64,000 bases of DNA from Sulfuricella denitrificans skB26 (GCF_000297055.2 NC_022357.1:2243501-2307500); one strand, 5' to 3'. Positions 48,135-60,026 are shown, counted from the stretch's first letter. Numbers and translations: made by a program. Notes: generated from the letters alone by a model not told the origin.

Positions 48135-48331
48135 CTTCGCCTCAAGTGGGCGGGGAATTAAACCCAAAGAGATTAAAGTCGGCTCACGTTTGGCGCATCA
48201 GGTGTATATCTCGCCCGTTTTTGGTGCGCCCATATAGCCCTGTCTTTTGGTCACACCGTCTATTTTCACTGATTCTATTCAGGATCAACCAGTTGCCTGC
48301 CATGGTATGAGAATTGCGTTATCGGCAAGTT

Positions 48332-48937
48332 ATGAACCCCCCCGTCAAACCCTCTGAATTCCCTCTTCGTGTCTTGCTGGTAGACGAAACCTTCGAGCGC
48401 GCGGCGCTTCTTAAGCACGCCTTGCAGGATGCAGGCTGCAAGATTGTGGCTCACGTCTCCTCCAGTGCCGATCTGCCTGGCCTGGTGGCTGAATTAAAAC
48501 CGGATCTGATTATTCTGGATACGGAGTCCCCAGACCGGGACACGCTGGAGAATTTATGCGTTATCAGGCGTGATCAACCGCGCCCGATCGTGATGTTTAC
48601 CCACGATGATGATAGCGACAAGATCCACGCTGCCATTCGTGCCGGCGTCAGTGCTTATGTTGTAAATGGCCTGAAAAGCGAGCGTTTGCGTCCCATCATG
48701 GACGTGGCGATTGCACGCTTCAATGAATTTCAGGCAATGCGGGCGGATCTGGCAAAAGCGGAAGGCCAGCTTTCGGAGCGCAAGGATGTGGAGCGCGCCA
48801 AGGGAATTTTGATGAAGCAGCGCGGCTGGTCCGAAGAAGAGGCCTATCAGGCTTTGCGCAAAGCGGCCATGGACAAGGGCTCTCGCTTGGCGGACGTGGC
48901 GCGGCAGTTGGTCGAGATCACGGAATTGTTGGGTTAA
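48332..48937 (+). CDS. nasT: ANTAR-domain antitermination regulator NasT
   Basis: 201 residues from the ATG at 48332 (a TTG at 48314 is in frame). A pseudoreceiver domain (LRVLLVDETFERAALLKHALQDAG, LIILDTESPDRDTLEN) is followed by a C-terminal ANTAR RNA-binding domain (ERKDVERAKGILMKQRGWSEEEAYQALRKAAMDKGSRLADVARQLVEI). NasT binds tandem hairpins in nitrate operon leaders and prevents termination. Such a leader starts 38 bases after the stop. NasS, its usual inhibitor and nitrate sensor, is not beside it. Confidence 0.93.
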   Translation: MNPPVKPSEFPLRVLLVDETFERAALLKHALQDAGCKIVAHVSSSADLPGLVAELKPDLIILDTESPDRDTLENLCVIRRDQPRPIVMFTHDDDSDKIHAAIRAGVSAYVVNGLKSERLRPIMDVAIARFNEFQAMRADLAKAEGQLSERKDVERAKGILMKQRGWSEEEAYQALRKAAMDKGSRLADVARQLVEITELLG

Positions 48938-48944
48938 ATAATTC

Positions 48945-48960
48945 TGGCACGTGTATTGCT
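48945..48960 (+). promoter_or_regulatory. Sigma-54 promoter of the nrt operon
   Basis: TGGCACGTGTATTGCT: GG at 48946-48947 and GC at 48958-48959 with ten bases between, a full match to the -24/-12 consensus. RNA would start near 48971, just before the first ANTAR hairpin. Confidence 0.85.
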
Positions 48961-48974
48961 TTAGGTAAATCAAC

Positions 48975-49034
48975 GGTCCAACGACGGGCCACAGCAAGTG
49001 AATAGAATCTGAGCCGACCAACGACGGTTGGCTC
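48975..49034 (+). promoter_or_regulatory. ANTAR-type tandem hairpin leader for NasT
   Basis: Hairpin 1 (48975-48990): GGTCC/GGGCC around the hexaloop AACGAC. Hairpin 2 (49011-49034): a nine-pair stem GAGCCGACC/GGTTGGCTC around the same hexaloop AACGAC. A at loop position 1 and G at position 4 match the known ANTAR target consensus. Twenty bases separate the stems. Binding of NasT should favour read-through of the terminator that follows. Confidence 0.88.
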
Positions 49035-49043
49035 ATAAGGACA

Positions 49044-49107
49044 AAGGCGTCCATTCGCGGGAGTAATTCCTTTCGCGGATGCGACGCCTTTTTTGTTTTG
49101 TTTTTTT
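49044..49107 (+). terminator. Regulated terminator before nrtA
   Basis: A long stem pairs 49044-49059 (AAGGCGTCCATTCGCG) with 49074-49090 through one bulge, followed by TTTTTTGTTTTGTTTTTTT. It lies between the ANTAR hairpins and nrtA and would stop transcription when NasT is not bound. Confidence 0.9.
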
Positions 49108-49122
49108 ATCCAGGAGAAAACC

Positions 49123-50376
49123 ATGACTACAGATTCCAAAAACAGCCGGAGAGATTTCATGAAAAAAGGCGCTACTTTACTGGGGGCCGGGGCATTGATG
49201 TCCATGGTCGATCCAGCAATACGTGTCGGTGCCTGGGCAGCAGGTTCCGATGCACCGGAAAAGGCCGAGGTCAAGATCGGCTTTATTCCTCTGACAGATT
49301 GCGCCTCGGTGGTGATCGCTTCGGTGATGGGCTTCGACAAGAAATACGGCATAAAAATCGTGCCCAGCAAGGAAGCCTCCTGGGCCGGCGTGCGCGACAA
49401 GCTGGTGAACGGCGAACTGGATGCTTCCCATGTGCTGTACGGCCTGATCTACGGGGTTCAGCTGGGCATAGGCGGGCCGAAAAAAGACATGTCGGTACTG
49501 ATGAGCATCAACAACAATGGCCAGGCCATTTCCCTGTCCAATCAGCTGAAGACCAAAGGTGCGGTGGATGGCACCAGTCTGGCTGCGCTGATCAAGAAGG
49601 AGCCGCGCGAGTATATTTTCGCCCAGACCTTCCCCACCGGCACCCACGCCATGTGGCTTTACTACTGGCTGGCGTCGCATGGCATCAATCCATTCGCCGA
49701 CGTGAAGAACATCACCGTGCCGCCACCGCAAATGATCGCCAACATGCGGGTAGGCAATATGGATGGATTTTGCGTCGGCGAACCCTGGAACGCACGGGCC
49801 ATTCGCGACAACGTGGGCTTTACGGCTGTCACCAGCCAGGACATCTGGAAGGACCATCCGGAAAAAGTGCTCGGCACCACGGCTGAATTCGTACATAAAT
49901 ACCCCAATACTGCGCGAGCCATGATCATGGCAATGCTGGATGCATCCAAATACATTGACGACATGAAGAACCGGGCGCAAGTGGCCAAGATTATTGCCGA
50001 GAAATCCTACGTCAACACCGATTTCGACTCCATCGAGGATCGCATGCTGGGCCAGTACGACAACGGCAACGGAAAGAAATGGCAGGATGCCAATTACATG
50101 AAGTTCTACAACGACGGTGCGGTGAACTTCCCCTACCTGTCAGACGGTATGTGGTTCCTCACCCAGCACAAGCGCTGGGGCCTGCTCAAGGAAGATCCGG
50201 ACTACCTGGCAGTGGCCAAGCAGGTCAACCAGATCGAACTGTACAAACAGGCTGCGACCCAGACCAAGACGCCCATTCCGAAGGATGTCATGCGTACCAG
50301 CAAGCTTATGGATGGCAGTGTATGGGATGGCAAGAACCCCAAAGCCTACGCCGCCAGCTTTAAAGTTAAAGCGTAA
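49123..50376 (+). CDS. nrtA: Nitrate ABC transporter substrate-binding protein NrtA
   Basis: 417 residues from the ATG at 49123 (AGGAG upstream). A twin-arginine signal (NSRRDFMKKGATLLGAGALMS) precedes the CmpA/NrtA-type binding domain: IGFIPLTDCASVVIASVMGFDKKYGI, ASHVLYGLIYGVQLGIGG, TFPTGTHAMWLYYWLASHGINPFADV, NMDGFCVGEPWNARAI. It captures nitrate (possibly nitrite) in the periplasm for NrtB and NrtC. It is the first gene after the sigma-54/ANTAR leader. Confidence 0.94.
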   Translation: MTTDSKNSRRDFMKKGATLLGAGALMSMVDPAIRVGAWAAGSDAPEKAEVKIGFIPLTDCASVVIASVMGFDKKYGIKIVPSKEASWAGVRDKLVNGELDASHVLYGLIYGVQLGIGGPKKDMSVLMSINNNGQAISLSNQLKTKGAVDGTSLAALIKKEPREYIFAQTFPTGTHAMWLYYWLASHGINPFADVKNITVPPPQMIANMRVGNMDGFCVGEPWNARAIRDNVGFTAVTSQDIWKDHPEKVLGTTAEFVHKYPNTARAMIMAMLDASKYIDDMKNRAQVAKIIAEKSYVNTDFDSIEDRMLGQYDNGNGKKWQDANYMKFYNDGAVNFPYLSDGMWFLTQHKRWGLLKEDPDYLAVAKQVNQIELYKQAATQTKTPIPKDVMRTSKLMDGSVWDGKNPKAYAASFKVKA

Positions 50377-50406: not shown

Positions 50407-50820
50407 ATGACACCTGAAAAAATAGCACTGGTTCGCAGTAGCTGGCAGCAGGTAGTACCCATTCAGGATACTGCAGCCGGACTCTTTTATAACCGCCTGT
50501 TCGAACTGGACCCTTCCCTGCGCAACCTGTTCAACGGGGATATGGTCGAGCAAGGACGCAAGCTCATGATCATGATCAACATGGTCGTCAACAGCCTGGA
50601 CCGACTCGAATCCATCATCGGAATGGTGAAAGAATCAGGGCGTCGTCACGTCGGATATGGCGTCAAGGCAGAGCATTTCGACACCGTGGGCAATGCCCTG
50701 ATCTGGACTTTGGGCCAAGGGCTAGGCGCAGGCTTTACGCCCGAGGTCAAGGAAGGATGGGTCGAGGCTTATGGCGTACTGGCCTCTACCATGAAACAGG
50801 CTGCCTACGGCTCGGCATAA
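50407..50820 (+). CDS. Single-domain globin
   Basis: 137 residues with the pattern of flavohemoglobin globin domains: LVRSSWQQVVPIQDTAAGLFYNRLFELDP, the CD region FNGDMVEQGRKLMIM, and the proximal His in GRRHVGYGVKAEHFDTVGNALIWTL. No reductase domain is attached. Its place between nrtA and nrtB suggests removal of nitric oxide formed during nitrate/nitrite reduction, or oxygen sensing; this is inference from context. Spacing of 30 and 67 bases fits one operon. Confidence 0.9.
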   Translation: MTPEKIALVRSSWQQVVPIQDTAAGLFYNRLFELDPSLRNLFNGDMVEQGRKLMIMINMVVNSLDRLESIIGMVKESGRRHVGYGVKAEHFDTVGNALIWTLGQGLGAGFTPEVKEGWVEAYGVLASTMKQAAYGSA

Positions 50821-50887
50821 TACGAGCCCGTCTCCGGACTGGCACTTGCGCCAGCCCGGAGGTGCAGCCCACAAACAGGAGTTTAAA

Positions 50888-51799
50888 ATGAATGCAGCGA
50901 ATCCAGGCATAGAAAGCCTGAAGGAAATCACGGCAGGCGATGGAACCATCGCCACAGCCAAAGTCTTCAAGATTTCGCCATCTATCAATGTGAGCGAACC
51001 CGTGCCCACAACTGGGCGACGTTTTTCCCTGGCAGCCAAAAATTTCTTTAAATGGCTGGTTCCGCCGGTGCTGGGTCTGACGATTTTCATCGGCATCTGG
51101 GCACTGGTTTCCCAGACCAGCCCGCAACTACCCGGCCCGCTCAAGACCTGGGCATCGGCACAGCAGCTGTTCAGCGACCCTTTTTACAACAAGGGCCCCA
51201 ATGATCAGGGCATCGGCTGGAATATCCTGGCCTCGCTGCAACGGGTGGGGATCGGCTTCGGCATGGCAGCAGCAATCGGCATTCCCCTCGGCTTCATGAT
51301 CGGACGCTTCAAGTTTCTCAACGCCATGACCGCCCCGATCATCAGCCTGCTGCGCCCGGTTTCCCCCCTGGCGTGGTTGCCGATTGGCCTGCTGGTATTC
51401 AAGGCAGCCAATCCGGCAGCGATCTGGGTGATTTTCATCTCCGCCATCTGGCCGATGATCATCAACACCGCAGTCGGCGTAAACCGCATTCCGCAGGATT
51501 ACATGAACGTGGCAAAGGTACTCAACCTGTCGGAATGGAAGGTTTTCACCAAAATCCTCTTCCCCGCCGTGCTGCCCTACATGATGACCGGCATCCGCCT
51601 CTCTATCGGAGTGGCCTGGCTGGTAATCGTGGCTGCGGAGATGCTGACCGGCGGTGTCGGCCTGGGTTTCTGGGTGTGGGATGAATGGAACAACCTCAAC
51701 GTCGAGCACATCATCATCGCCATTTTCGTGGTCGGTATCGTCGGGTTACTGCTGGAGCAGATGCTGGTACTGCTGGCAAAACGGTTTAGTTACGAATGA
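50888..51799 (+). CDS. nrtB: Nitrate ABC transporter permease NrtB
   Basis: 303 residues from the ATG at 50888 (ACAGGAG upstream). About six transmembrane helices start at WLVPPVLGLTIFIGIWALVSQTSPQ. The coupling-helix region is LRPVSPLAWLPIGLLVFKAANPAAIWVIFISAIWPMIINTAVGVNRIPQDYMNVAKVL, typical of the NrtB/SsuC group. It forms the nitrate channel with NrtC. An inverted GTGAGG repeat begins over its stop codon and fills the gap to nrtC. Confidence 0.93.
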   Translation: MNAANPGIESLKEITAGDGTIATAKVFKISPSINVSEPVPTTGRRFSLAAKNFFKWLVPPVLGLTIFIGIWALVSQTSPQLPGPLKTWASAQQLFSDPFYNKGPNDQGIGWNILASLQRVGIGFGMAAAIGIPLGFMIGRFKFLNAMTAPIISLLRPVSPLAWLPIGLLVFKAANPAAIWVIFISAIWPMIINTAVGVNRIPQDYMNVAKVLNLSEWKVFTKILFPAVLPYMMTGIRLSIGVAWLVIVAAEMLTGGVGLGFWVWDEWNNLNVEHIIIAIFVVGIVGLLLEQMLVLLAKRFSYE

Positions 51800-51907: not shown

Positions 51908-52699
51908 ATGGAAAAATATGTTCAGATCGAAAACGTGCAAATGACTTTCGACACCAAGAAAGGCCCCTTCGTCGCATTGCGCGACATCAACCTCAACATC
52001 GCGCAGGGGGAGTTCGTCTCCCTGATCGGCCACTCGGGCTGTGGGAAATCCACCCTGCTCAACCTGGTTGCCGGGCTGACCATTCCCAGCAACGGCGCAA
52101 TGCTCTGCGCCGGGCGGGAAATCGCCGGGCCTGGGCCGGAACGCGGGGTGGTGTTCCAGAATCATTCCCTGCTGCCATGGCTGACCTGCTTCGAAAACGT
52201 TCATCTGGCGGTCGAGCGTGTCTTTGCCCGGGCAGAAAGCAGCGCATCCATGAAAAAACGCACCCAGGCAGCGCTCGCGCTGGTCGGGCTGAGCCATGCC
52301 GAGCACAAGTATCCACATGAAATTTCCGGCGGCATGAAACAGCGGGTCGGCATCGCTCGCGCCCTGTCCATGCAGCCCAAAGTGCTGCTGATGGACGAGC
52401 CGTTCGGCGCGCTGGATGCCTTGACCCGCGCCCATCTCCAGGACGAACTGATGAAGATTGCAGCGGAAACCAAAAGCACGGTGATCATGGTGACCCACGA
52501 CGTGGACGAAGCCGTCCTGCTGTCCGACCGCATCGTGATGATGACCAACGGCCCGGCCGCCACCATCGGCGAGATCCTGACGGTCAGCTTGCCGCGCCCA
52601 CGCGAGCGTCTGGCACTGGCGAACAACCCGAAATACCACGAATACCGCGGTGCGGTGCTGGACTTCCTGTATCGCCGACAACTGCGCCCGGCAGCCTAA
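51908..52699 (+). CDS. nrtC: Nitrate ABC transporter ATPase NrtC/NrtD type
   Basis: 263 residues. Walker A is [16 protein letters not shown], the signature [16 protein letters not shown], Walker [18 protein letters not shown], and the switch [19 protein letters not shown]. It lacks the extra C-terminal NrtA-like domain found in cyanobacterial NrtC, so it resembles NrtD in length. It energises NrtB. It is the last gene of the operon. Confidence 0.92.
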
Positions 52700-53150: not shown

Positions 53151-55598
53151 ATGCAAAAACAGAAACTCGTTCTCGTGGGTAACGGCATGGCCGGGGTGCG
53201 CACGCTGGAGGAACTGCTGAAAATCGCGTCTGATAAATACGACATTACCGTATTCGGCGCCGAGCCTCACCCCAACTACAACCGTATCCTGTTGTCCCCG
53301 GTCCTGGCTGGCGAGCAGACAGTCCAGGACATCATCATCAATGAGATGGACTGGTACGAGCAGAATCAGATCCATCTGCACATTAACAAAAAAGTCACCA
53401 AGATCGATCGCAAAAATCGCATCGTCTTTACCGAAGACGGCACCAGTGCGGAATATGACCGCCTGCTGCTGTCCACCGGCTCCAACCCCTTCATCCTGCC
53501 CATTCCTGGCGCAGAACTGCCGGGCGTCGTTTCCTTCCGTGATATCAGCGACGTTGAGGCTATGCTTGATGCGTCCAGCCGCTACCGCAATGCAGTGGTG
53601 ATCGGCGGCGGACTGCTCGGCCTGGAAGCCGCTAACGGCCTGATGTTGCGCGGCATGGACGTGACCGTCGTGCATATCGCGCCCTGGCTGATGGATCGTC
53701 AGCTCGACGAACCGGCGGCCCGCCTGCTGCAACAAAGCCTGGAAGCCAAGGGCCTCAAATTCCTGCTGGAGAAACAGACCGGCGCGCTGGTGCCGGGCGA
53801 ATCCGGCCGCGTCTGCGCAGTGAGCTTCAAGGATGGCGATAGCATTCCCGCCGATCTGGTGGTGATGGCGGTCGGCATACGCCCCAACACGGAGCTGGCT
53901 GAAAGCGCCGGTCTCTACTGCAATCGCGGCGTGGTAGTTAACGACACCCTGCAAACATTCGACCCACGCATCTACGCCGTCGGCGAGTGCGTCAGCCACC
54001 GCGGCGTGGCTTATGGGCTGGTCGCACCCCTGTTCGAACAGGCCAAAGTAGCCGCCAATCATCTGGCTGAATATGGCATAGGCTGCTATACCGGCTCGCT
54101 CACCTCGACCAAGCTCAAGGTCACCGGGATCGACTTGTTTTCCGCCGGAGATTACATGGGTGCTGAAGGCACCGATGCCATCGTGCTTTCCGACCCGGCA
54201 GGCGGCAATTACAAGAAAGTCGTGCTCAAGGACAACAAGGTGGTGGGCGCGGTGCTGTATGGCGACACCACGGAGGGCAGCTGGTATTTCGACCTGCTGC
54301 GCGAGGGGACCGATGTTTCGGATATTCGCTCTTCCCTGCTGTTCGGCCAGCACAACCTGGGCGATTCCGGCCACGGCGACCCTCATGCCCGCGTCGCGGC
54401 CATGCCGGACAGCGCCGAGATTTGCGGCTGCAATGGCGTTTGCAAGGGCGATATCGTCAAAGCCATCCGCGACAAGAAGCTTTTTACCCTGGATGAGGTG
54501 CGTGCCCATACCAAGGCGTCCAGTTCCTGCGGGTCATGTACCGGCCTGGTGGAGTCGCTGCTGGCAGTGACGGTTGGTGGCGACTATTCCACCGCACCGT
54601 CCAAAAAACCGATGTGCGGCTGTACCGAGCATTCCCATGACGAGGTGCGCGAAACCATCACCCGCCAAGGCATCAAGAGCATCCCCGCGCTGATGCATTT
54701 CATGGAATGGAAAACCCCCGATGGCTGCAACAAGTGCCGCACGGCGTTGAACTACTACCTGCTGTGCGCGTGGCCGTCCGAATACGTGGACGACAACCAG
54801 TCGCGCTACATCAACGAGCGCGTGCATGCCAACATCCAGAAGGATGGCACCTACTCCGTGATACCGCGCATTTTCGGTGGCGACACCTCGCCCAAACAGC
54901 TGATGGCGATTGCTCAGATTGCCGAGCGTTGGGAAGTACCCACGGTGAAGTTTACCGGCGGCCAGCGCCTCGATCTTCTGGGGATCAGGAAAGAACAACT
55001 GCCGGGCATCTGGAAAGACCTTTCCGAAGCCGGATTTGTCTCCGGGCACGCTTACGGCAAGGCCATGCGTACCGTAAAAACCTGTGTCGGCAGCCAGTGG
55101 TGCCGCTTCGGTACCCAGGATTCGACCACCATGGGGATCAAGTTGGAAGAACTCACCTGGGGTTCGTGGACACCACACAAGTTCAAGCTGGCCGTCTCGG
55201 GCTGCCCGCGCAACTGCGCCGAAGCCACCATCAAGGACTTTGGCGTAGTCGCGGTGGATTCGGGCTGGGAACTACATATCGGTGGCAACGGCGGGATCAA
55301 GGTGCGCGCCACCGACTTCCTGTGCCATGTAAAGACCGAGGAAGAGGTTCTGGAATACTGCGCCGCCTTCATGCAGGTTTACCGCGAAGATGCGCATTAC
55401 CTGGAGCGCACCGCGCCCTGGGTGGAACGACGCGGTCTGACCTATGTCAAGGAACGCGTGGTGGATGACGCCGAGCAGCGCAAGGTCTATGCCGAGCGCT
55501 TTTACGAATCGCAGAAATATTCACAGGACGATCCATGGAAAGCGCGTGGCGAGGGTGTGGATGCCCACGAATACAAGCCTATGGCTATCCTGAGCTGA
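53151..55598 (+). CDS. nirB: Assimilatory NAD(P)H nitrite reductase large subunit NirB
   Basis: 815 residues. An N-terminal FAD/NAD domain (LVLVGNGMAGVRTLEELL, VVIGGGLLGLEAANGLMLRG) is followed by a BFD-like [2Fe-2S] domain (CGCNGVCKGDIVKAI, SSCGSCTGLVESLL). The C-terminal siroheme/[4Fe-4S] half carries TCVGSQWCRFGTQDS and VSGCPRNCAEATIKDFG. It reduces nitrite to ammonium in the cytoplasm. It is the first gene of nirB-nirD-nasA-fused FeS/membrane subunit, under a sigma-54 promoter. Confidence 0.96.
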   Translation: MQKQKLVLVGNGMAGVRTLEELLKIASDKYDITVFGAEPHPNYNRILLSPVLAGEQTVQDIIINEMDWYEQNQIHLHINKKVTKIDRKNRIVFTEDGTSAEYDRLLLSTGSNPFILPIPGAELPGVVSFRDISDVEAMLDASSRYRNAVVIGGGLLGLEAANGLMLRGMDVTVVHIAPWLMDRQLDEPAARLLQQSLEAKGLKFLLEKQTGALVPGESGRVCAVSFKDGDSIPADLVVMAVGIRPNTELAESAGLYCNRGVVVNDTLQTFDPRIYAVGECVSHRGVAYGLVAPLFEQAKVAANHLAEYGIGCYTGSLTSTKLKVTGIDLFSAGDYMGAEGTDAIVLSDPAGGNYKKVVLKDNKVVGAVLYGDTTEGSWYFDLLREGTDVSDIRSSLLFGQHNLGDSGHGDPHARVAAMPDSAEICGCNGVCKGDIVKAIRDKKLFTLDEVRAHTKASSSCGSCTGLVESLLAVTVGGDYSTAPSKKPMCGCTEHSHDEVRETITRQGIKSIPALMHFMEWKTPDGCNKCRTALNYYLLCAWPSEYVDDNQSRYINERVHANIQKDGTYSVIPRIFGGDTSPKQLMAIAQIAERWEVPTVKFTGGQRLDLLGIRKEQLPGIWKDLSEAGFVSGHAYGKAMRTVKTCVGSQWCRFGTQDSTTMGIKLEELTWGSWTPHKFKLAVSGCPRNCAEATIKDFGVVAVDSGWELHIGGNGGIKVRATDFLCHVKTEEEVLEYCAAFMQVYREDAHYLERTAPWVERRGLTYVKERVVDDAEQRKVYAERFYESQKYSQDDPWKARGEGVDAHEYKPMAILS

Positions 55599-55619: not shown

Positions 55620-55964
55620 ATGCAAACAACCAACAATCAGCAAAACTGGGTCGAAGTCGGCCGTATCGAAGACATTCCGCTGCTAGGCGCGCGACTGGTG
55701 AAGTCCCCGAAAGGCGATATCGCCGTCTTCCGCACCCAGGGTGACGAAATCTTCGCCCTGCGCGACAAGTGCCCGCACAAAGGGGGGCCGCTTTCTCAGG
55801 GTATCGTGCATGGCAAGAAAGTCGCCTGCCCGCTGCACGACTGGAAAATCCATCTCGATACCGGGCTGGCCGTGGCTCCGGATGAAGGGTGCGCAGCACG
55901 CTTCCCGGTGGAAGTGCGGGATGGCCTGATCTACCTTTCCCTTGAGCCCGATTCCGGCCGTTAG
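55620..55964 (+). CDS. nirD: Nitrite reductase small subunit NirD
   Basis: 114 residues, a Rieske-type fold. Both ligand pairs are present: KCPHKGGPLSQG (Cys-X-His) and ACPLHDWKI (Cys-X2-His), so a [2Fe-2S] cluster is likely; some NirD proteins lack these residues. It assists NirB in electron transfer. It lies 21 bases after nirB. Confidence 0.94.
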   Translation: MQTTNNQQNWVEVGRIEDIPLLGARLVKSPKGDIAVFRTQGDEIFALRDKCPHKGGPLSQGIVHGKKVACPLHDWKIHLDTGLAVAPDEGCAARFPVEVRDGLIYLSLEPDSGR

Positions 55965-55982
55965 AATTACTGAGGAATAATC

Positions 55983-58187
55983 ATGCTCTTCGGACGCAAA
56001 CAAAAAAACCCGATCAAGATCGCCGACAAGGGCGTGGTCGAATGGAAATACGCCGCCTGCGGCTACTGTTCCACCGGTTGCTCGATTGAAGTCGGACTGA
56101 ACGCGGAAGGCAAGCCCGTCACCTCGCGCGGGGTGGCGGATGCAGACGTCAATCGCGGCAAGTTATGTCTGAAGGGCATTTTCGAACACGAGCTGTTTAC
56201 TTCAGCCGGGCGCGGCACCGAACCGCTGATGCGCGAGCAGTGGCATCAGGACTGGCAGCCCGCGACCTGGGATAGCGCGCTGGACAAGGTGCATGACGAA
56301 ATCGTGCGGATCCAGGCCAAATATGGGCGTGATTCTGTCGCCATCATCTCCACCGGACAGATGCTGACCGAAGAGTTTTACACACTCGGCAAACTCACCC
56401 GTGGCCTGATCGGCACCAACAACTACGATGGCAATACCACCCTGTGCATGGCGTCTGCGGTATCGGGCTACAAGCGCTCCTTCGGTTCGGACGGCCCGCC
56501 GGGCTGCTATGAGGATTTCGAGCATACCGACTGCCTTTTTGCCTGGGGTTCCAACCTGCCGGAGCAGCACCCCATCATCTACTGGCGCATGAAAGAAGCG
56601 CAGGAAAAACGCGGCTTTCCGCTGATCGTGGTCGATCCGCGCGTGACCATGCTGGCGCAGAACGCCCACATCCACCTCGCCATCACACCGGGCACCGATG
56701 TGGTGCTGATGAACGCCATGATGCATGTCATCTTCGCCGAAAAGCTAGAAGACAGTAGCTACATCGAGACCAATACCAATGGGATAGATATGCTGCGCGC
56801 CGAAGTCGCCAAATATGACCCGGTGACCGCCTCCAAAATCTGCGGCATCGACGAAGACACCATCCGCGTTGTTGCCCGTCTCTATGCCAAGGCCGGCGCA
56901 GCCATGGCGATCTGGACGATGGGGATCAACCAGTCCACCCACGGCTCGGACGGCGTGGTCGGCATCAACAATCTAGCGCTCATCACCGGCAACATTGGCA
57001 AGCCGGGCGGCACCAGCCTTTCCATTACCGGACAGTGCAACGCGATGGGCACCCGCGAATGGTCTTCCTGCTCCGGGCTGCCCAATTACCGCGCGCTGGA
57101 AAACCCCGATCACCGCGCGGAAATTGCCGATTTCTGGGGCATCGACCCGGAATTCTTCCCTAAAAAACGCGGCATGTTTCAAACCGACATTTACCACGCG
57201 ATTGAAAGCGGGCAGATCAAAGGGCTGTGGCTGATCGCGACCAATCCCTTATCGTCTCTGCCCAACAGCGCAAGGGTTCGCAAGGCGATGGAGAGCCTGG
57301 AGTTCTGCGCGGTGCAGGACTGCTATCACGACACCGAAAGCGCCCAGTACGCCCACGTTTATCTACCCGCAGGTACCTGGGCAGAAAAAGACGGCGTAAT
57401 GACTAACACCGAGCGCCGGATCAGCGTAGTGAAGCCGGTGACCCCACCTCCGGGCCAGGCCCAGCCTGATTTATGGATTTTCAACCGGATGGCGGAGCGC
57501 TTTAATCAGAGCGGCAAGGTCAATTTCCCGGAAAAGGCCGCCGACATCTTCCTCGAGATGGGAAAACTATCCGTCGGCCGGCTGGCCGATATCTCCGGCA
57601 TGAACCACGAGTTGCTGGAAAAACAACGGGGCATCCAGTGGCCATATACACAAGAGCAGGTAAAGAATGGCGAGGCCCCGCCCAAGGGAGGCAAGCGCCT
57701 GTATACGGTCGATGGCACTTTCAGCTATGCCGATGGCAAGGCCAAACTGATTCCCTTGCCTTTCATCGACAACAACGAAGTGCCGGATGAAAAATTTCCC
57801 ATCTGGCTGAACACCGGGCGCTTGATCGAGCATTGGCACGGCCGCACCAAGACCGGAAAAATTGGCAACAACAACAAATACAGCCCGATTCCGTTCATCG
57901 AAATAAACCCGGACCTGGCGGCAGAACTGAACATAGAGCGGGGCGAATATGTGCGGCTGGTATCTCGCCGCTCGGATGCAGTGGTGATGGCGATGCCGAC
58001 CCAGCGCGTACCGAAGAATATGGTTTTTCTGCCCTTTCATTTTCATGATTGCGCCAACCGCCTGACATTAGGCCTGCTCGACCCGCACTCGCGCCAGCCT
58101 GCCTACAAACAGTCAGCCGTGCGCATTGAACGCATCGCCAACCAGATGGCGGCGGCAAAATTGAGCATGGAAATGCGCAAGTTCTGA
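55983..58187 (+). CDS. nasA: NasA-like molybdopterin nitrate reductase catalytic subunit
   Basis: 734 residues. An N-terminal [4Fe-4S] set (ACGYCSTGC and GKLCLKG) is followed by TLCMASAVSGYKRSFGSDGPPGCYEDFEHTDC, where LCMAS holds the likely Mo-ligand Cys of Nas/Nap enzymes. NTGRLIEHWHGRTKTG and the C-terminal cofactor domain complete it. No Tat signal is seen, so it acts in the cytoplasm. The C-terminal [2Fe-2S] extension of Klebsiella-type NasA is absent. The neighbours nirBD point to nitrate as substrate; the next gene suggests a membrane electron source. Confidence 0.9.
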   Translation: MLFGRKQKNPIKIADKGVVEWKYAACGYCSTGCSIEVGLNAEGKPVTSRGVADADVNRGKLCLKGIFEHELFTSAGRGTEPLMREQWHQDWQPATWDSALDKVHDEIVRIQAKYGRDSVAIISTGQMLTEEFYTLGKLTRGLIGTNNYDGNTTLCMASAVSGYKRSFGSDGPPGCYEDFEHTDCLFAWGSNLPEQHPIIYWRMKEAQEKRGFPLIVVDPRVTMLAQNAHIHLAITPGTDVVLMNAMMHVIFAEKLEDSSYIETNTNGIDMLRAEVAKYDPVTASKICGIDEDTIRVVARLYAKAGAAMAIWTMGINQSTHGSDGVVGINNLALITGNIGKPGGTSLSITGQCNAMGTREWSSCSGLPNYRALENPDHRAEIADFWGIDPEFFPKKRGMFQTDIYHAIESGQIKGLWLIATNPLSSLPNSARVRKAMESLEFCAVQDCYHDTESAQYAHVYLPAGTWAEKDGVMTNTERRISVVKPVTPPPGQAQPDLWIFNRMAERFNQSGKVNFPEKAADIFLEMGKLSVGRLADISGMNHELLEKQRGIQWPYTQEQVKNGEAPPKGGKRLYTVDGTFSYADGKAKLIPLPFIDNNEVPDEKFPIWLNTGRLIEHWHGRTKTGKIGNNNKYSPIPFIEINPDLAAELNIERGEYVRLVSRRSDAVVMAMPTQRVPKNMVFLPFHFHDCANRLTLGLLDPHSRQPAYKQSAVRIERIANQMAAAKLSMEMRKF

Positions 58188-58202
58188 TGCAAAGGAATCC
58201 AC

Positions 58203-60026
58203 ATGTTTAAAGTACGCGACAACGAACCCGACTACGCCCTGCTGGCCGACAAAGATTCCCAGACCCTTAACCGCTATGGGCTGTCCATCGATAAAGCGCA
58301 GCAAGGCGACGCGCTGTACGGAAAAAGCCTGAACATCAATGGCGATGGCGAAATCGGCAGCAATCCCAACCGCTACAAACAGCACGGTTTCTATTTCAAT
58401 GCCGACAACTGCATCGCCTGCCATGCCTGCGAAGCCGCCTGCAGCGAAAAGAACGACAACCCGGCGCATATCGCCTTCCGCTCGGTGGGCTTCGTCGAAG
58501 GCGGCACTTACCCGAATTACCAGCGCCTCAACATTTCGATGGCCTGCAACCACTGCGACGACCCGGTCTGCCTGAAAGGCTGCCCGACCCGCGCCTACAC
58601 CAAGTTCGCAGAATACGGCGCGGTACTGCAAGACCCGGATATCTGCTTCGGCTGCGGCTACTGCACCTGGGTGTGCCCGTACAATGCGCCGCAGCTCGAC
58701 CCGGTCAAGGGTCAGGTCAGCAAATGCAACATGTGCGTGGACCGGCTCGAGGTCGGCTTGAAGCCCGCCTGCGTTTCGGCCTGTCTGGGCAAGGCACTGG
58801 ATTTCGGCGTGATCGAAAACATTCCGGAAGGGCGCGCCCAGGCCAAGACGGAAATCCCCGGTTTTCCCAGCCCCGAAATCACCCATCCGAACATCCGTTT
58901 TCAGCAAACACGCACCACCCAGCGCGACATGGTGCGGGTTGACAGCACTGCCCTGAAATACCACCGCGACGACACCAGCGGCGCATTCCGCCCGACACTG
59001 GACCCCAAGCATGGCTACCAGCGGCACTGGAACCTGAAGAAACTGCTCGGTTCACACGAAAACGCGCATATCGCCTTCACCCTGAGCGTACAGACCGTGA
59101 TGGGCGCATTTCTGTTGCTGATCCTGGGAGGCTGGCTGGGAAATGCGCCACTGTCCGCCTTTGGCGGCAGTGCCGCGTACCTGCCCTTGCTGGGCCTGAT
59201 GCTGGCGCTGATGAGCTTCGGCCTGTTCAAGCTCAACATGCATCTGGGCAAACCGCTGCGGTTCTACCGCGGTTTCAACAACCTGCGGCACTCCCCGGTA
59301 AGCCGTGAAATTGCCGGCGTGTCGCTGTTCTTCGCCGGACTGGCAGGCTACGGTTTCTTCACCTTCTTTGGCGGCATGATCGCCTCATTGATCGGCGACG
59401 CGCTGACCGGGGCGCTGCGCAATCTGGCTGCTGGCGCGGGGATACTGGGTGCTGGCCTGGGCGGATACTACATGATCAAGCTCTACCTGATCCCTGCCCG
59501 CCCCTTCTGGAACCACTGGCATACCGGCGCCGCTTTCGTGGCCACGGCACTGGGTCTGGGCGCACTGTTGCTGGCGTTGACCGCGTGGCTGACGGGTGCG
59601 CTGACCAACGAACTGGGGGTGGTCCTGGCCAGCGTGGCGGCCACAGGCTTTGCTCTGGAAGGCATCGGCCTGATAGTCCATGCCCGCGATCTCAAAGCCA
59701 AGGGCGACGAAGGCATGGCCTCGTTCTACGAGCAAACCACCACCTACGGCTACCCTTACTGGCTGCGCAACGGATTGCTGGCGACCAGCCTGATGCTGGC
59801 GCTGGGCATGGGGTTCATCGGGCAGGCCAGTGGACTGGCGTTCGCGATGCTGACCTTGACTGCACTGACCAGCGGGATTCTGGGACGGGCATTGTTCTAC
59901 GTGCTGGTCATCCCGACCACCATGCCTGGTGCGTTCTTCTGGAGGAACAAGGGATTTGTCGAACATGCAAAAGAAGTAGGTCTGGCCAACATGCCGCAAG
60001 TCGGCGTGGTGCCGGATGCACATTGA
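58203..60026 (+). CDS. DmsB-like FeS protein fused to DmsC-like membrane anchor
   Basis: 607 residues. Residues ~60-215 form a four-cluster ferredoxin domain: CIACHACEAACSE, CNHCDDPVCLKGC, CFGCGYCTWVCP and CNMCVDRLEVGLKPACVSAC. Residues ~290-600 contain about eight transmembrane helices of DmsC type. In DMSO reductase these are separate subunits that carry electrons from menaquinol to the Mo subunit. Here the fusion follows nasA by 15 bases, so it likely feeds the NasA-like enzyme from quinol. No Tat signal exists, so the FeS part should face the cytoplasm. Confidence 0.88.
   Translation: MFKVRDNEPDYALLADKDSQTLNRYGLSIDKAQQGDALYGKSLNINGDGEIGSNPNRYKQHGFYFNADNCIACHACEAACSEKNDNPAHIAFRSVGFVEGGTYPNYQRLNISMACNHCDDPVCLKGCPTRAYTKFAEYGAVLQDPDICFGCGYCTWVCPYNAPQLDPVKGQVSKCNMCVDRLEVGLKPACVSACLGKALDFGVIENIPEGRAQAKTEIPGFPSPEITHPNIRFQQTRTTQRDMVRVDSTALKYHRDDTSGAFRPTLDPKHGYQRHWNLKKLLGSHENAHIAFTLSVQTVMGAFLLLILGGWLGNAPLSAFGGSAAYLPLLGLMLALMSFGLFKLNMHLGKPLRFYRGFNNLRHSPVSREIAGVSLFFAGLAGYGFFTFFGGMIASLIGDALTGALRNLAAGAGILGAGLGGYYMIKLYLIPARPFWNHWHTGAAFVATALGLGALLLALTAWLTGALTNELGVVLASVAATGFALEGIGLIVHARDLKAKGDEGMASFYEQTTTYGYPYWLRNGLLATSLMLALGMGFIGQASGLAFAMLTLTALTSGILGRALFYVLVIPTTMPGAFFWRNKGFVEHAKEVGLANMPQVGVVPDAH

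What the first reader, a model, noticed from the sequence alone, without database searches (positions are those of the whole stretch)
55983..60026. NasA-like nitrate reductase paired with a fused DmsB-DmsC quinol module
Assimilatory NasA usually draws electrons from NADH or ferredoxin. Here it is followed at 15 bases by one polypeptide carrying a four-cluster FeS domain and a DmsC-type anchor, and the usual NasA C-terminal [2Fe-2S] domain is absent. This suggests a membrane-tethered, quinol-driven, cytoplasm-facing enzyme linked with NirBD, which would blur assimilation and respiration. I regard this as the best candidate for a little-described system.
Basis: partly seen in the sequence, partly recalled or inferred. 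Interest (0 to 1): 0.72.

Follow-up and report, generated by a model that had tools for sequence, protein, structure and literature searches.

The report
Quinol-linked assimilatory nitrate reductase module
A nitrate reductase used to feed on nitrate as a nitrogen source is paired, across many sulfur-oxidising, methane-oxidising and other mostly CO2-fixing bacteria, with its own membrane unit that most likely supplies electrons directly from the respiratory quinol pool instead of from costly NADH or ferredoxin.

Summary
A 734-aa NasA-like protein without the C-terminal [2Fe-2S] domain is followed after 15 nt by a 607-aa fusion of a four-cluster FeS domain and a DmsC-type 8-helix anchor. The finding is neither local nor accidental: 58 of 61 fusions in a 369-genome class sample lie directly downstream of a nasA of one monophyletic clade, and only one of the three exceptions is a real separation. 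In 85 fusions all 16 FeS cysteines and both DmsC quinol-site residues (E. coli H65, E87) are invariant. Positive-inside analysis puts the FeS and quinol-site side in the cytoplasm (9.65 vs 0.93 K+R), as for SoeC and opposite to six Tat-linked DmsC controls. There is no Tat signal in 67 clade NasA. The operon holds nitrate ABC transporter genes, nirBD, an ANTAR regulator and its hairpin-plus-terminator leader. The genome has NapA, but no NarG and no classical NasA. Best explanation: a cytoplasm-facing quinol:nitrate oxidoreductase for assimilation, working like SoeABC run in reverse with NasA as catalyst. The architecture is well supported; quinol as donor is inferred, not assayed. No paper found describes it. 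New variant of a known kind.

The parts
48314..48937 (+). ANTAR-type (NasT/NasR-like) antitermination regulator gene
   Evidence: ORF; family assigned by reading the sequence, no NCBIfam model matched at E<=1e-20; supported by the RNA target directly downstream
48975..49035 (+). tandem hairpins with identical AACGAC hexaloops: ANTAR-type RNA target
   Evidence: fold z=-6.66; only such tandem pair in the 64-kb window on either strand; overlaps a sub-threshold Rfam narK RNA match, 30.8 bits vs 43.2
49046..49094 (+). strong intrinsic terminator hairpin plus T run upstream of nrtA
   Evidence: fold; coordinates
49126..50376 (+). nrtA/nasF-like nitrate-binding protein with twin-Arg leader (ATG start after the leader)
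   Evidence: only such protein in the genome, so no separate NasS found
50407..50820 (+). small globin
   Evidence: by reading the sequence; no NCBIfam match
50846..51799 (+). nitrate ABC transporter permease (NrtB)
   Evidence: TIGR01183 259 bits, above cut-off
51908..52699 (+). nitrate ABC transporter ATP-binding protein (NrtC/D)
   Evidence: TIGR01184 351 bits, above cut-off
53151..55598 (+). nirB, NADH nitrite reductase large subunit
   Evidence: TIGR02374 970 bits, above cut-off
55620..55964 (+). nirD, nitrite reductase small subunit
   Evidence: TIGR02378 100 bits, above cut-off
55983..58187 (+). nasA-type catalytic subunit, 734 aa, no Tat signal, no C-terminal [2Fe-2S] domain
58203..60026 (+). 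fused FeS-anchor subunit (DmsB-DmsC type), 607 aa
58398..58811 (+). four-[4Fe-4S] ferredoxin domain, residues 66-203, 16 invariant Cys
59061..59921 (+). DmsC-type 8-helix membrane domain, residues 287-573
59241..59309 (+). putative quinol-site loop: H347 (= E. coli DmsC H65) to E369 (= E87)
   Evidence: both invariant in 85/85 fusions and in all 8 control anchors

Best explanation
NasA and the fused FeS-anchor protein form one membrane-bound complex on the cytoplasmic face. Quinol is oxidised at the DmsC-type site (H347/E369) near the FeS side of the membrane. Electrons pass through the four [4Fe-4S] clusters of the fused domain to the NasA [4Fe-4S] cluster and Mo-bisPGD, where nitrate is reduced to nitrite in the cytoplasm. 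NirBD then reduces nitrite to ammonium with NADH. Because the quinol site, the clusters and the substrate are on the same side and no heme crosses the membrane, the step should be electroneutral: it serves assimilation and spares one NADH (or two reduced ferredoxins) per nitrate, worth most where NADH must be made by reverse electron transport. Shown here: the genes, domain anatomy, invariant cluster and quinol-site residues, predicted inverted topology, near-obligate pairing, absence of Tat signals, nitrate operon context. Inferred: complex formation, quinol as donor, electroneutrality, physiological advantage.
For: Pairing: 58/61 fusions in 369 class genomes directly downstream of the clade nasA, gaps 2-796 nt; G226 and G227 lie at contig ends, only G055 is truly split; 69/70 loci elsewhere, and in the one exception an IS-type transposase gene lies upstream. 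The NasA clade is monophyletic, 100/100, 67-88% identical in most members versus 36-41% for Fer2_BFD-bearing NasA. Topology: 85/85 fusions have K+R on the FeS side, mean 9.65 (7-12) vs 0.93 (0-3); SoeC controls 10-12 vs 0-1; six DmsC whose catalytic partners have Tat signals 2-5 vs 5-9; 0/67 clade NasA have a Tat motif. Quinol residues H65/E87 invariant. Membrane-domain fold matches ActC of alternative complex III and PsrC with bound menaquinone. NasA motif CMASAV with Cys ligand and NasA/NapA-like INQ loop, not the FdhF-type CHGPSV. Sole NasA in a genome with NapA but no NarG. Operon of nrtABC, nirBD and ANTAR leader. NasA and fusion distances co-vary more (r=0.69) than NasA with NirB (0.33). 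RuBisCO in 54/60 module genomes vs 38/60 with classical NasA only (p=0.001) and 38/41 vs 31/48 by family (p=0.002).
Against: No activity, localisation or complex has been measured. H65/E87 are conserved in all DmsC relatives, including SoeC where the flow is the opposite way, so they show a quinone site but not direction. The AlphaFold model of the FeS domain is unreliable (pLDDT <50 over 54-248) and no model of the two chains together could be made. The RuBisCO association is partly phylogenetic. NasA could still accept electrons from ferredoxin as well.
Confidence: 0.77

Rival explanations
1. The pair is a respiratory (dissimilatory) nitrate reductase: quinol:nitrate reduction in the cytoplasm for electron disposal or ammonification with NirBD, not for assimilation.
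For: Anatomy is that of a respiratory CISM enzyme; NirBD can serve ammonification; many hosts are facultative denitrifiers (own knowledge).
Against: Operon has an ATP-driven nitrate importer (TIGR01183/TIGR01184 above cut-off) and an ANTAR antitermination leader as in nas operons; genome has NapA for respiration and no other NasA; by anatomy no proton translocation.
Confidence: 0.13
2. NasA is a soluble ferredoxin/flavodoxin-dependent enzyme (NarB-like) and the fused FeS-anchor protein serves something else or only tethers it.
For: NarB/NasC-type enzymes of about 730 aa without the [2Fe-2S] domain work with ferredoxin (own knowledge).
Against: Near one-to-one genetic pairing over dozens of families, correlated divergence, full cluster and quinol-site conservation; no other catalytic subunit is adjacent to the fusion in the pairs examined.
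Confidence: 0.06
3. The catalytic subunit is not a nitrate reductase but a formate dehydrogenase-like enzyme delivering electrons to quinone.
For: Best NCBIfam score is TIGR01591 Fdh-alpha, 541 bits.
Against: That is below its cut-off (666), and a classical NasA also scores best there (508 bits); active-site motifs are NasA/NapA type, not FdhF type; operon is nitrate transport plus nirBD.
Confidence: 0.03

Closest known systems
SoeABC (cytoplasmic membrane-bound sulfite-oxidising enzyme; e.g. Allochromatium vinosum, cited in PMC6335251)
   Same: Molybdoenzyme plus four-cluster FeS subunit plus DmsC-type anchor, no Tat signal, same K+R pattern placing the FeS side in the cytoplasm; a soeABC-type cluster occurs in the same genome (L138)
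   Different: Catalytic subunit is SoeA, not NasA; FeS and anchor are separate genes; electrons flow to, not from, quinone; fusion is only about 35% (FeS) and 22% (anchor) identical to it
DmsABC / YnfFGH (DMSO and selenate reductases)
   Same: DmsB-type FeS domain (38.5% identity) and DmsC anchor (26%) with H65 and E87
   Different: DmsA is Tat-exported and the complex faces the periplasm; K+R bias opposite; subunits separate; different catalytic subunit
Classical proteobacterial NasA with C-terminal [2Fe-2S] domain
   Same: Catalytic core, Cys-ligand motif, nirBD neighbourhood
   Different: 36-41% identity; carries Fer2_BFD and has no membrane partner
NarB / NasC assimilatory nitrate reductases
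   Same: About 700-730 aa core without [2Fe-2S] domain
   Different: NasC equivalog model NF047855 scores 471 against a cut-off of 1100; soluble, ferredoxin or NADH-reductase partner (own knowledge)
NarGHI respiratory nitrate reductase
   Same: Quinol to nitrate, cytoplasm-facing
   Different: NarG is a different clade; NarI is a di-heme protein allowing an electrogenic loop; none found in this genome

Membership tests
Assimilatory nitrate reductase, NasA kind | Mo-bisPGD core with N-terminal [4Fe-4S] and Cys Mo ligand in a NasA/NapA-like motif | tested here: met
   domains; CMASAV motif and four N-terminal Cys
Assimilatory nitrate reductase, NasA kind | cytoplasmic (no export signal) | tested here: met
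   0/67 clade members with a twin-Arg motif
Assimilatory nitrate reductase, NasA kind | operon with nitrate transport and nirBD | tested here: met
   nirB or a nirB-like gene in 43 of 47 loci with 8 kb upstream
Classical proteobacterial NasA subtype | C-terminal [2Fe-2S] BFD-like domain | tested here: not met
   absent in P0001; present in all 5 classical controls
NasC equivalog (NF047855) | score above the curated cut-off | tested here: not met
   471 vs 1100 bits
CISM electron-transfer module (DmsB/DmsC type) | four cubane clusters, 16 Cys | tested here: met
   16/16 invariant in 85 sequences
CISM electron-transfer module (DmsB/DmsC type) | DmsC-family anchor with quinol-site His and Glu | tested here: met
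   PF04976 48.9 bits vs cut-off 22.3; H65/E87 equivalents invariant
DmsABC proper | periplasm-facing, Tat-exported catalytic subunit | tested here: not met
   no Tat signal and inverted K+R bias
SoeABC-like orientation | DmsC anchor with FeS side in the cytoplasm | tested here: met
   K+R pattern as in two SoeC-type anchors; prediction only
SoeABC proper | SoeA catalytic subunit | tested here: not met
   P0001 carries NasA motifs and lies far from the SoeA-type protein in the tree
NapA | Tat-exported periplasmic enzyme, NapA equivalog score | tested here: not met
   397 vs 904 bits; a separate true NapA exists in the genome, 1604 bits
NarGHI | NarG equivalog with di-heme NarI | tested here: not met
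   35 vs 1084 bits; anchor is DmsC family
Quinol:nitrate oxidoreductase | quinol-dependent nitrate reduction by the complex | not testable with these tools
   needs a membrane assay

The most novel reading that the evidence does not exclude
A distinct, widespread class of assimilatory nitrate reductase: a monophyletic NasA lineage obligately paired with a fused, cytoplasm-facing DmsBC-type quinol dehydrogenase, which couples nitrate assimilation directly to the respiratory quinol pool in sulfur oxidisers, methanotrophs, their symbiotic relatives and other mostly autotrophic bacteria, where it spares NADH.
Probability: 0.7. Interest if true: 0.72.

Novelty: new variant of a known kind. Interest (0 to 1): 0.62.

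Why it matters
The known electron donors of assimilatory nitrate reductases are NADH, ferredoxin and flavodoxin (own knowledge). If this module works as inferred, a large set of chemolithoautotrophs, vent-tubeworm symbionts and methanotrophs pays for the first step of nitrate assimilation from the quinol pool, so their nitrogen budgets and reverse-electron-transport costs are calculated wrongly, and the gene simply annotated 'nasA' with nirBD in such organisms hides a membrane enzyme. It also gives a second case, besides SoeABC, of a DmsC anchor turned to the cytoplasm.

Tried and rejected
Formate dehydrogenase reading, prompted by the best NCBIfam score: rejected, since a classical NasA gives the same best hit and active-site motifs are NasA-like. 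Fusion occurring without nasA: tested in 369 genomes and 80 loci; exceptions are contig ends, one locus with a transposase gene upstream, and one true split. pmoA (PF02461) was sought in the 60 module genomes as a methanotrophy marker: no match, but the control did not ring either, so it says nothing. AlphaFold of the fusion: membrane part good, FeS domain unusable, so cluster-to-quinone distances were not measured. Ten literature searches found nasA+nirBD clusters in Zetaproteobacteria (PMC8114936) and Gallionellaceae (PMC10734462) but no description of the FeS-anchor partner in any passage read; only openly licensed papers were searchable. Tandem hexaloop leaders were not found in the seven related loci scanned, so the regulation is not claimed for the family.

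Full report
What is there. The two genes lie exactly as described: nasA 55983-58187 and the fusion 58203-60026, both +, 15 nt apart. They close an operon-like run: ANTAR regulator gene, leader RNA, nrtA, a globin, nrtB, nrtC/D, nirB, nirD, nasA, fusion. The next gene downstream is on the other strand (GGDEF/EAL protein). The genome (3.22 Mb, chromosome 3,130,594 nt plus 86,619 nt replicon) is a Sulfuricella: the fusion is 96% identical to that of Sulfuricella sp. T08.

Anatomy. NasA has the three molybdopterin-oxidoreductase domains and ends at 734 aa without a [2Fe-2S] domain; the five classical NasA proteins tested as controls all end in Fer2_BFD. Motifs around the Mo ligand (LCMASAV) and the INQS loop are NasA/NapA-like, not FdhF-like. 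The fusion carries a DmsB-type FeS domain and a DmsC domain. It also has an N-terminal extension of about 60 residues and a conserved C-terminal tail (IPTTMPGAFFW..GFVEHA) not seen in E. coli DmsB/DmsC. AlphaFold gives eight long helices with high confidence but fails on the FeS domain. The fold search returns quinol proteins: ActC of alternative complex III first, PsrC of polysulfide reductase with bound menaquinone, and cytochrome bd subunits.

Is the pairing real? In 369 genomes of the class, 60 hold the fusion at 61 places; 58 lie directly downstream of a nasA of the same clade, on the same strand. Of three exceptions two sit at contig ends and one (G055) is a true split, where the fusion lies next to a mobB-like gene (read from sequence) while nasA stays behind nrt-nirBD. 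In 70 loci from a separate collection with enough upstream sequence the score is 69; in the last an IS-type transposase gene lies upstream. A class-wide NasA search splits cleanly: about 62 places at 67% or more, and the rest at 36-41% with longer frames. The tree gives the clade 100/100 support, though joins outside it are uncertain. Pairwise distances of NasA and fusion correlate (r=0.69) better than NasA and NirB (0.33) in 39 loci with orthologous NirB. In Methylococcaceae and Cycloclasticus loci nirB is only 36-38% identical, yet the nasA-fusion pair is kept: the pair is the unit, NirBD the usual companion.

Which way does it face? Loops of the anchor were sorted by side. In all 85 fusions the side that bears the FeS domain and the H347/E369 loop holds 7-12 K+R against 0-3 on the other. 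Two SoeC-type anchors, the known cytoplasm-facing case, give 10-12 against 0-1. Six DmsC anchors whose catalytic partners carry Tat signals give 2-5 against 5-9. No clade NasA has a Tat motif (0/67). Hence a cytoplasm-facing complex; this is prediction, with a small but clean control set.

Does it have a quinol site? E. coli DmsC H65 and E87, known from mutants to matter for menaquinol (own knowledge), correspond to H347 and E369, invariant in 85/85 and in all eight control anchors. That shows a quinone site of the DmsC kind. It does not show direction; with nitrate as substrate the quinol-to-nitrate direction is the downhill one (own knowledge).

Assimilatory or respiratory? The importer is an ABC transporter. 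The leader carries two hairpins with identical AACGAC hexaloops (48975-48990, 49010-49035) and a terminator (49046-49094), the ANTAR antitermination layout of nas operons. The genome has a true NapA but neither NarG nor another NasA. I therefore favour assimilation.

Who has it? Sulfur-oxidising and methane-oxidising Gammaproteobacteria (GTDB sense), Sulfuricella, Thiobacillus, Gallionellaceae and Rhodocyclales relatives, tubeworm symbionts, Cycloclasticus, and two genomes of another class of the phylum. RuBisCO occurs in 54/60 carriers, 38/60 genomes with classical NasA only, and 81/246 with neither; by family 38/41 against 31/48 (p=0.002). This fits NADH sparing in autotrophs, but is partly shared ancestry.

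Known or new? NCBIfam has no model that takes this NasA in. Papers on Zetaproteobacteria and Gallionellaceae report nasA with nirBD without naming the FeS-anchor partner in the passages found; targeted searches found none that does. Each part is of a known kind and SoeABC is a precedent for the orientation. The combination, its fusion and its near-obligate distribution appear undescribed in the searchable literature. Verdict: new variant of a known kind.

Noticed in passing
window 48975-49094: Tandem AACGAC hexaloop hairpins followed by a terminator between an ANTAR gene and nrtA; overlaps a sub-threshold Rfam narK RNA (RF03032) match, suggesting that the narK RNA motif may be an ANTAR target.
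   Followed up: partly
window 48314-50376 and whole genome: NasT-like ANTAR regulator without a NasS partner: only one NrtA-type protein is found in the genome, so the nitrate sensor is unclear.
   Followed up: partly
L027 3528-8928, L031 3561-8747: nirB-nirD followed by a classical [2Fe-2S]-type NasA and then the quinol-type NasA plus fusion: both nitrate reductase types side by side in one cluster.
   Followed up: no
L132 840-3317, L133 993-3500: A further NasA-like lineage (826-836 aa, 36% identical, no Fer2_BFD in L132) grouping near the clade in the tree (93/90, long branches); partner genes not examined.
   Followed up: no
window 50407-50820: Small globin gene inside the nitrate transporter operon, possibly for nitric oxide protection.
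   Followed up: no
L107 4996-7739: In G055 the fusion is separated from nasA and lies beside a mobB-like molybdenum cofactor gene.
   Followed up: partly
L138 1226-5955: A soeABC-type cluster in the same genome, whose anchor has the same charge pattern as the fusion.
   Followed up: yes
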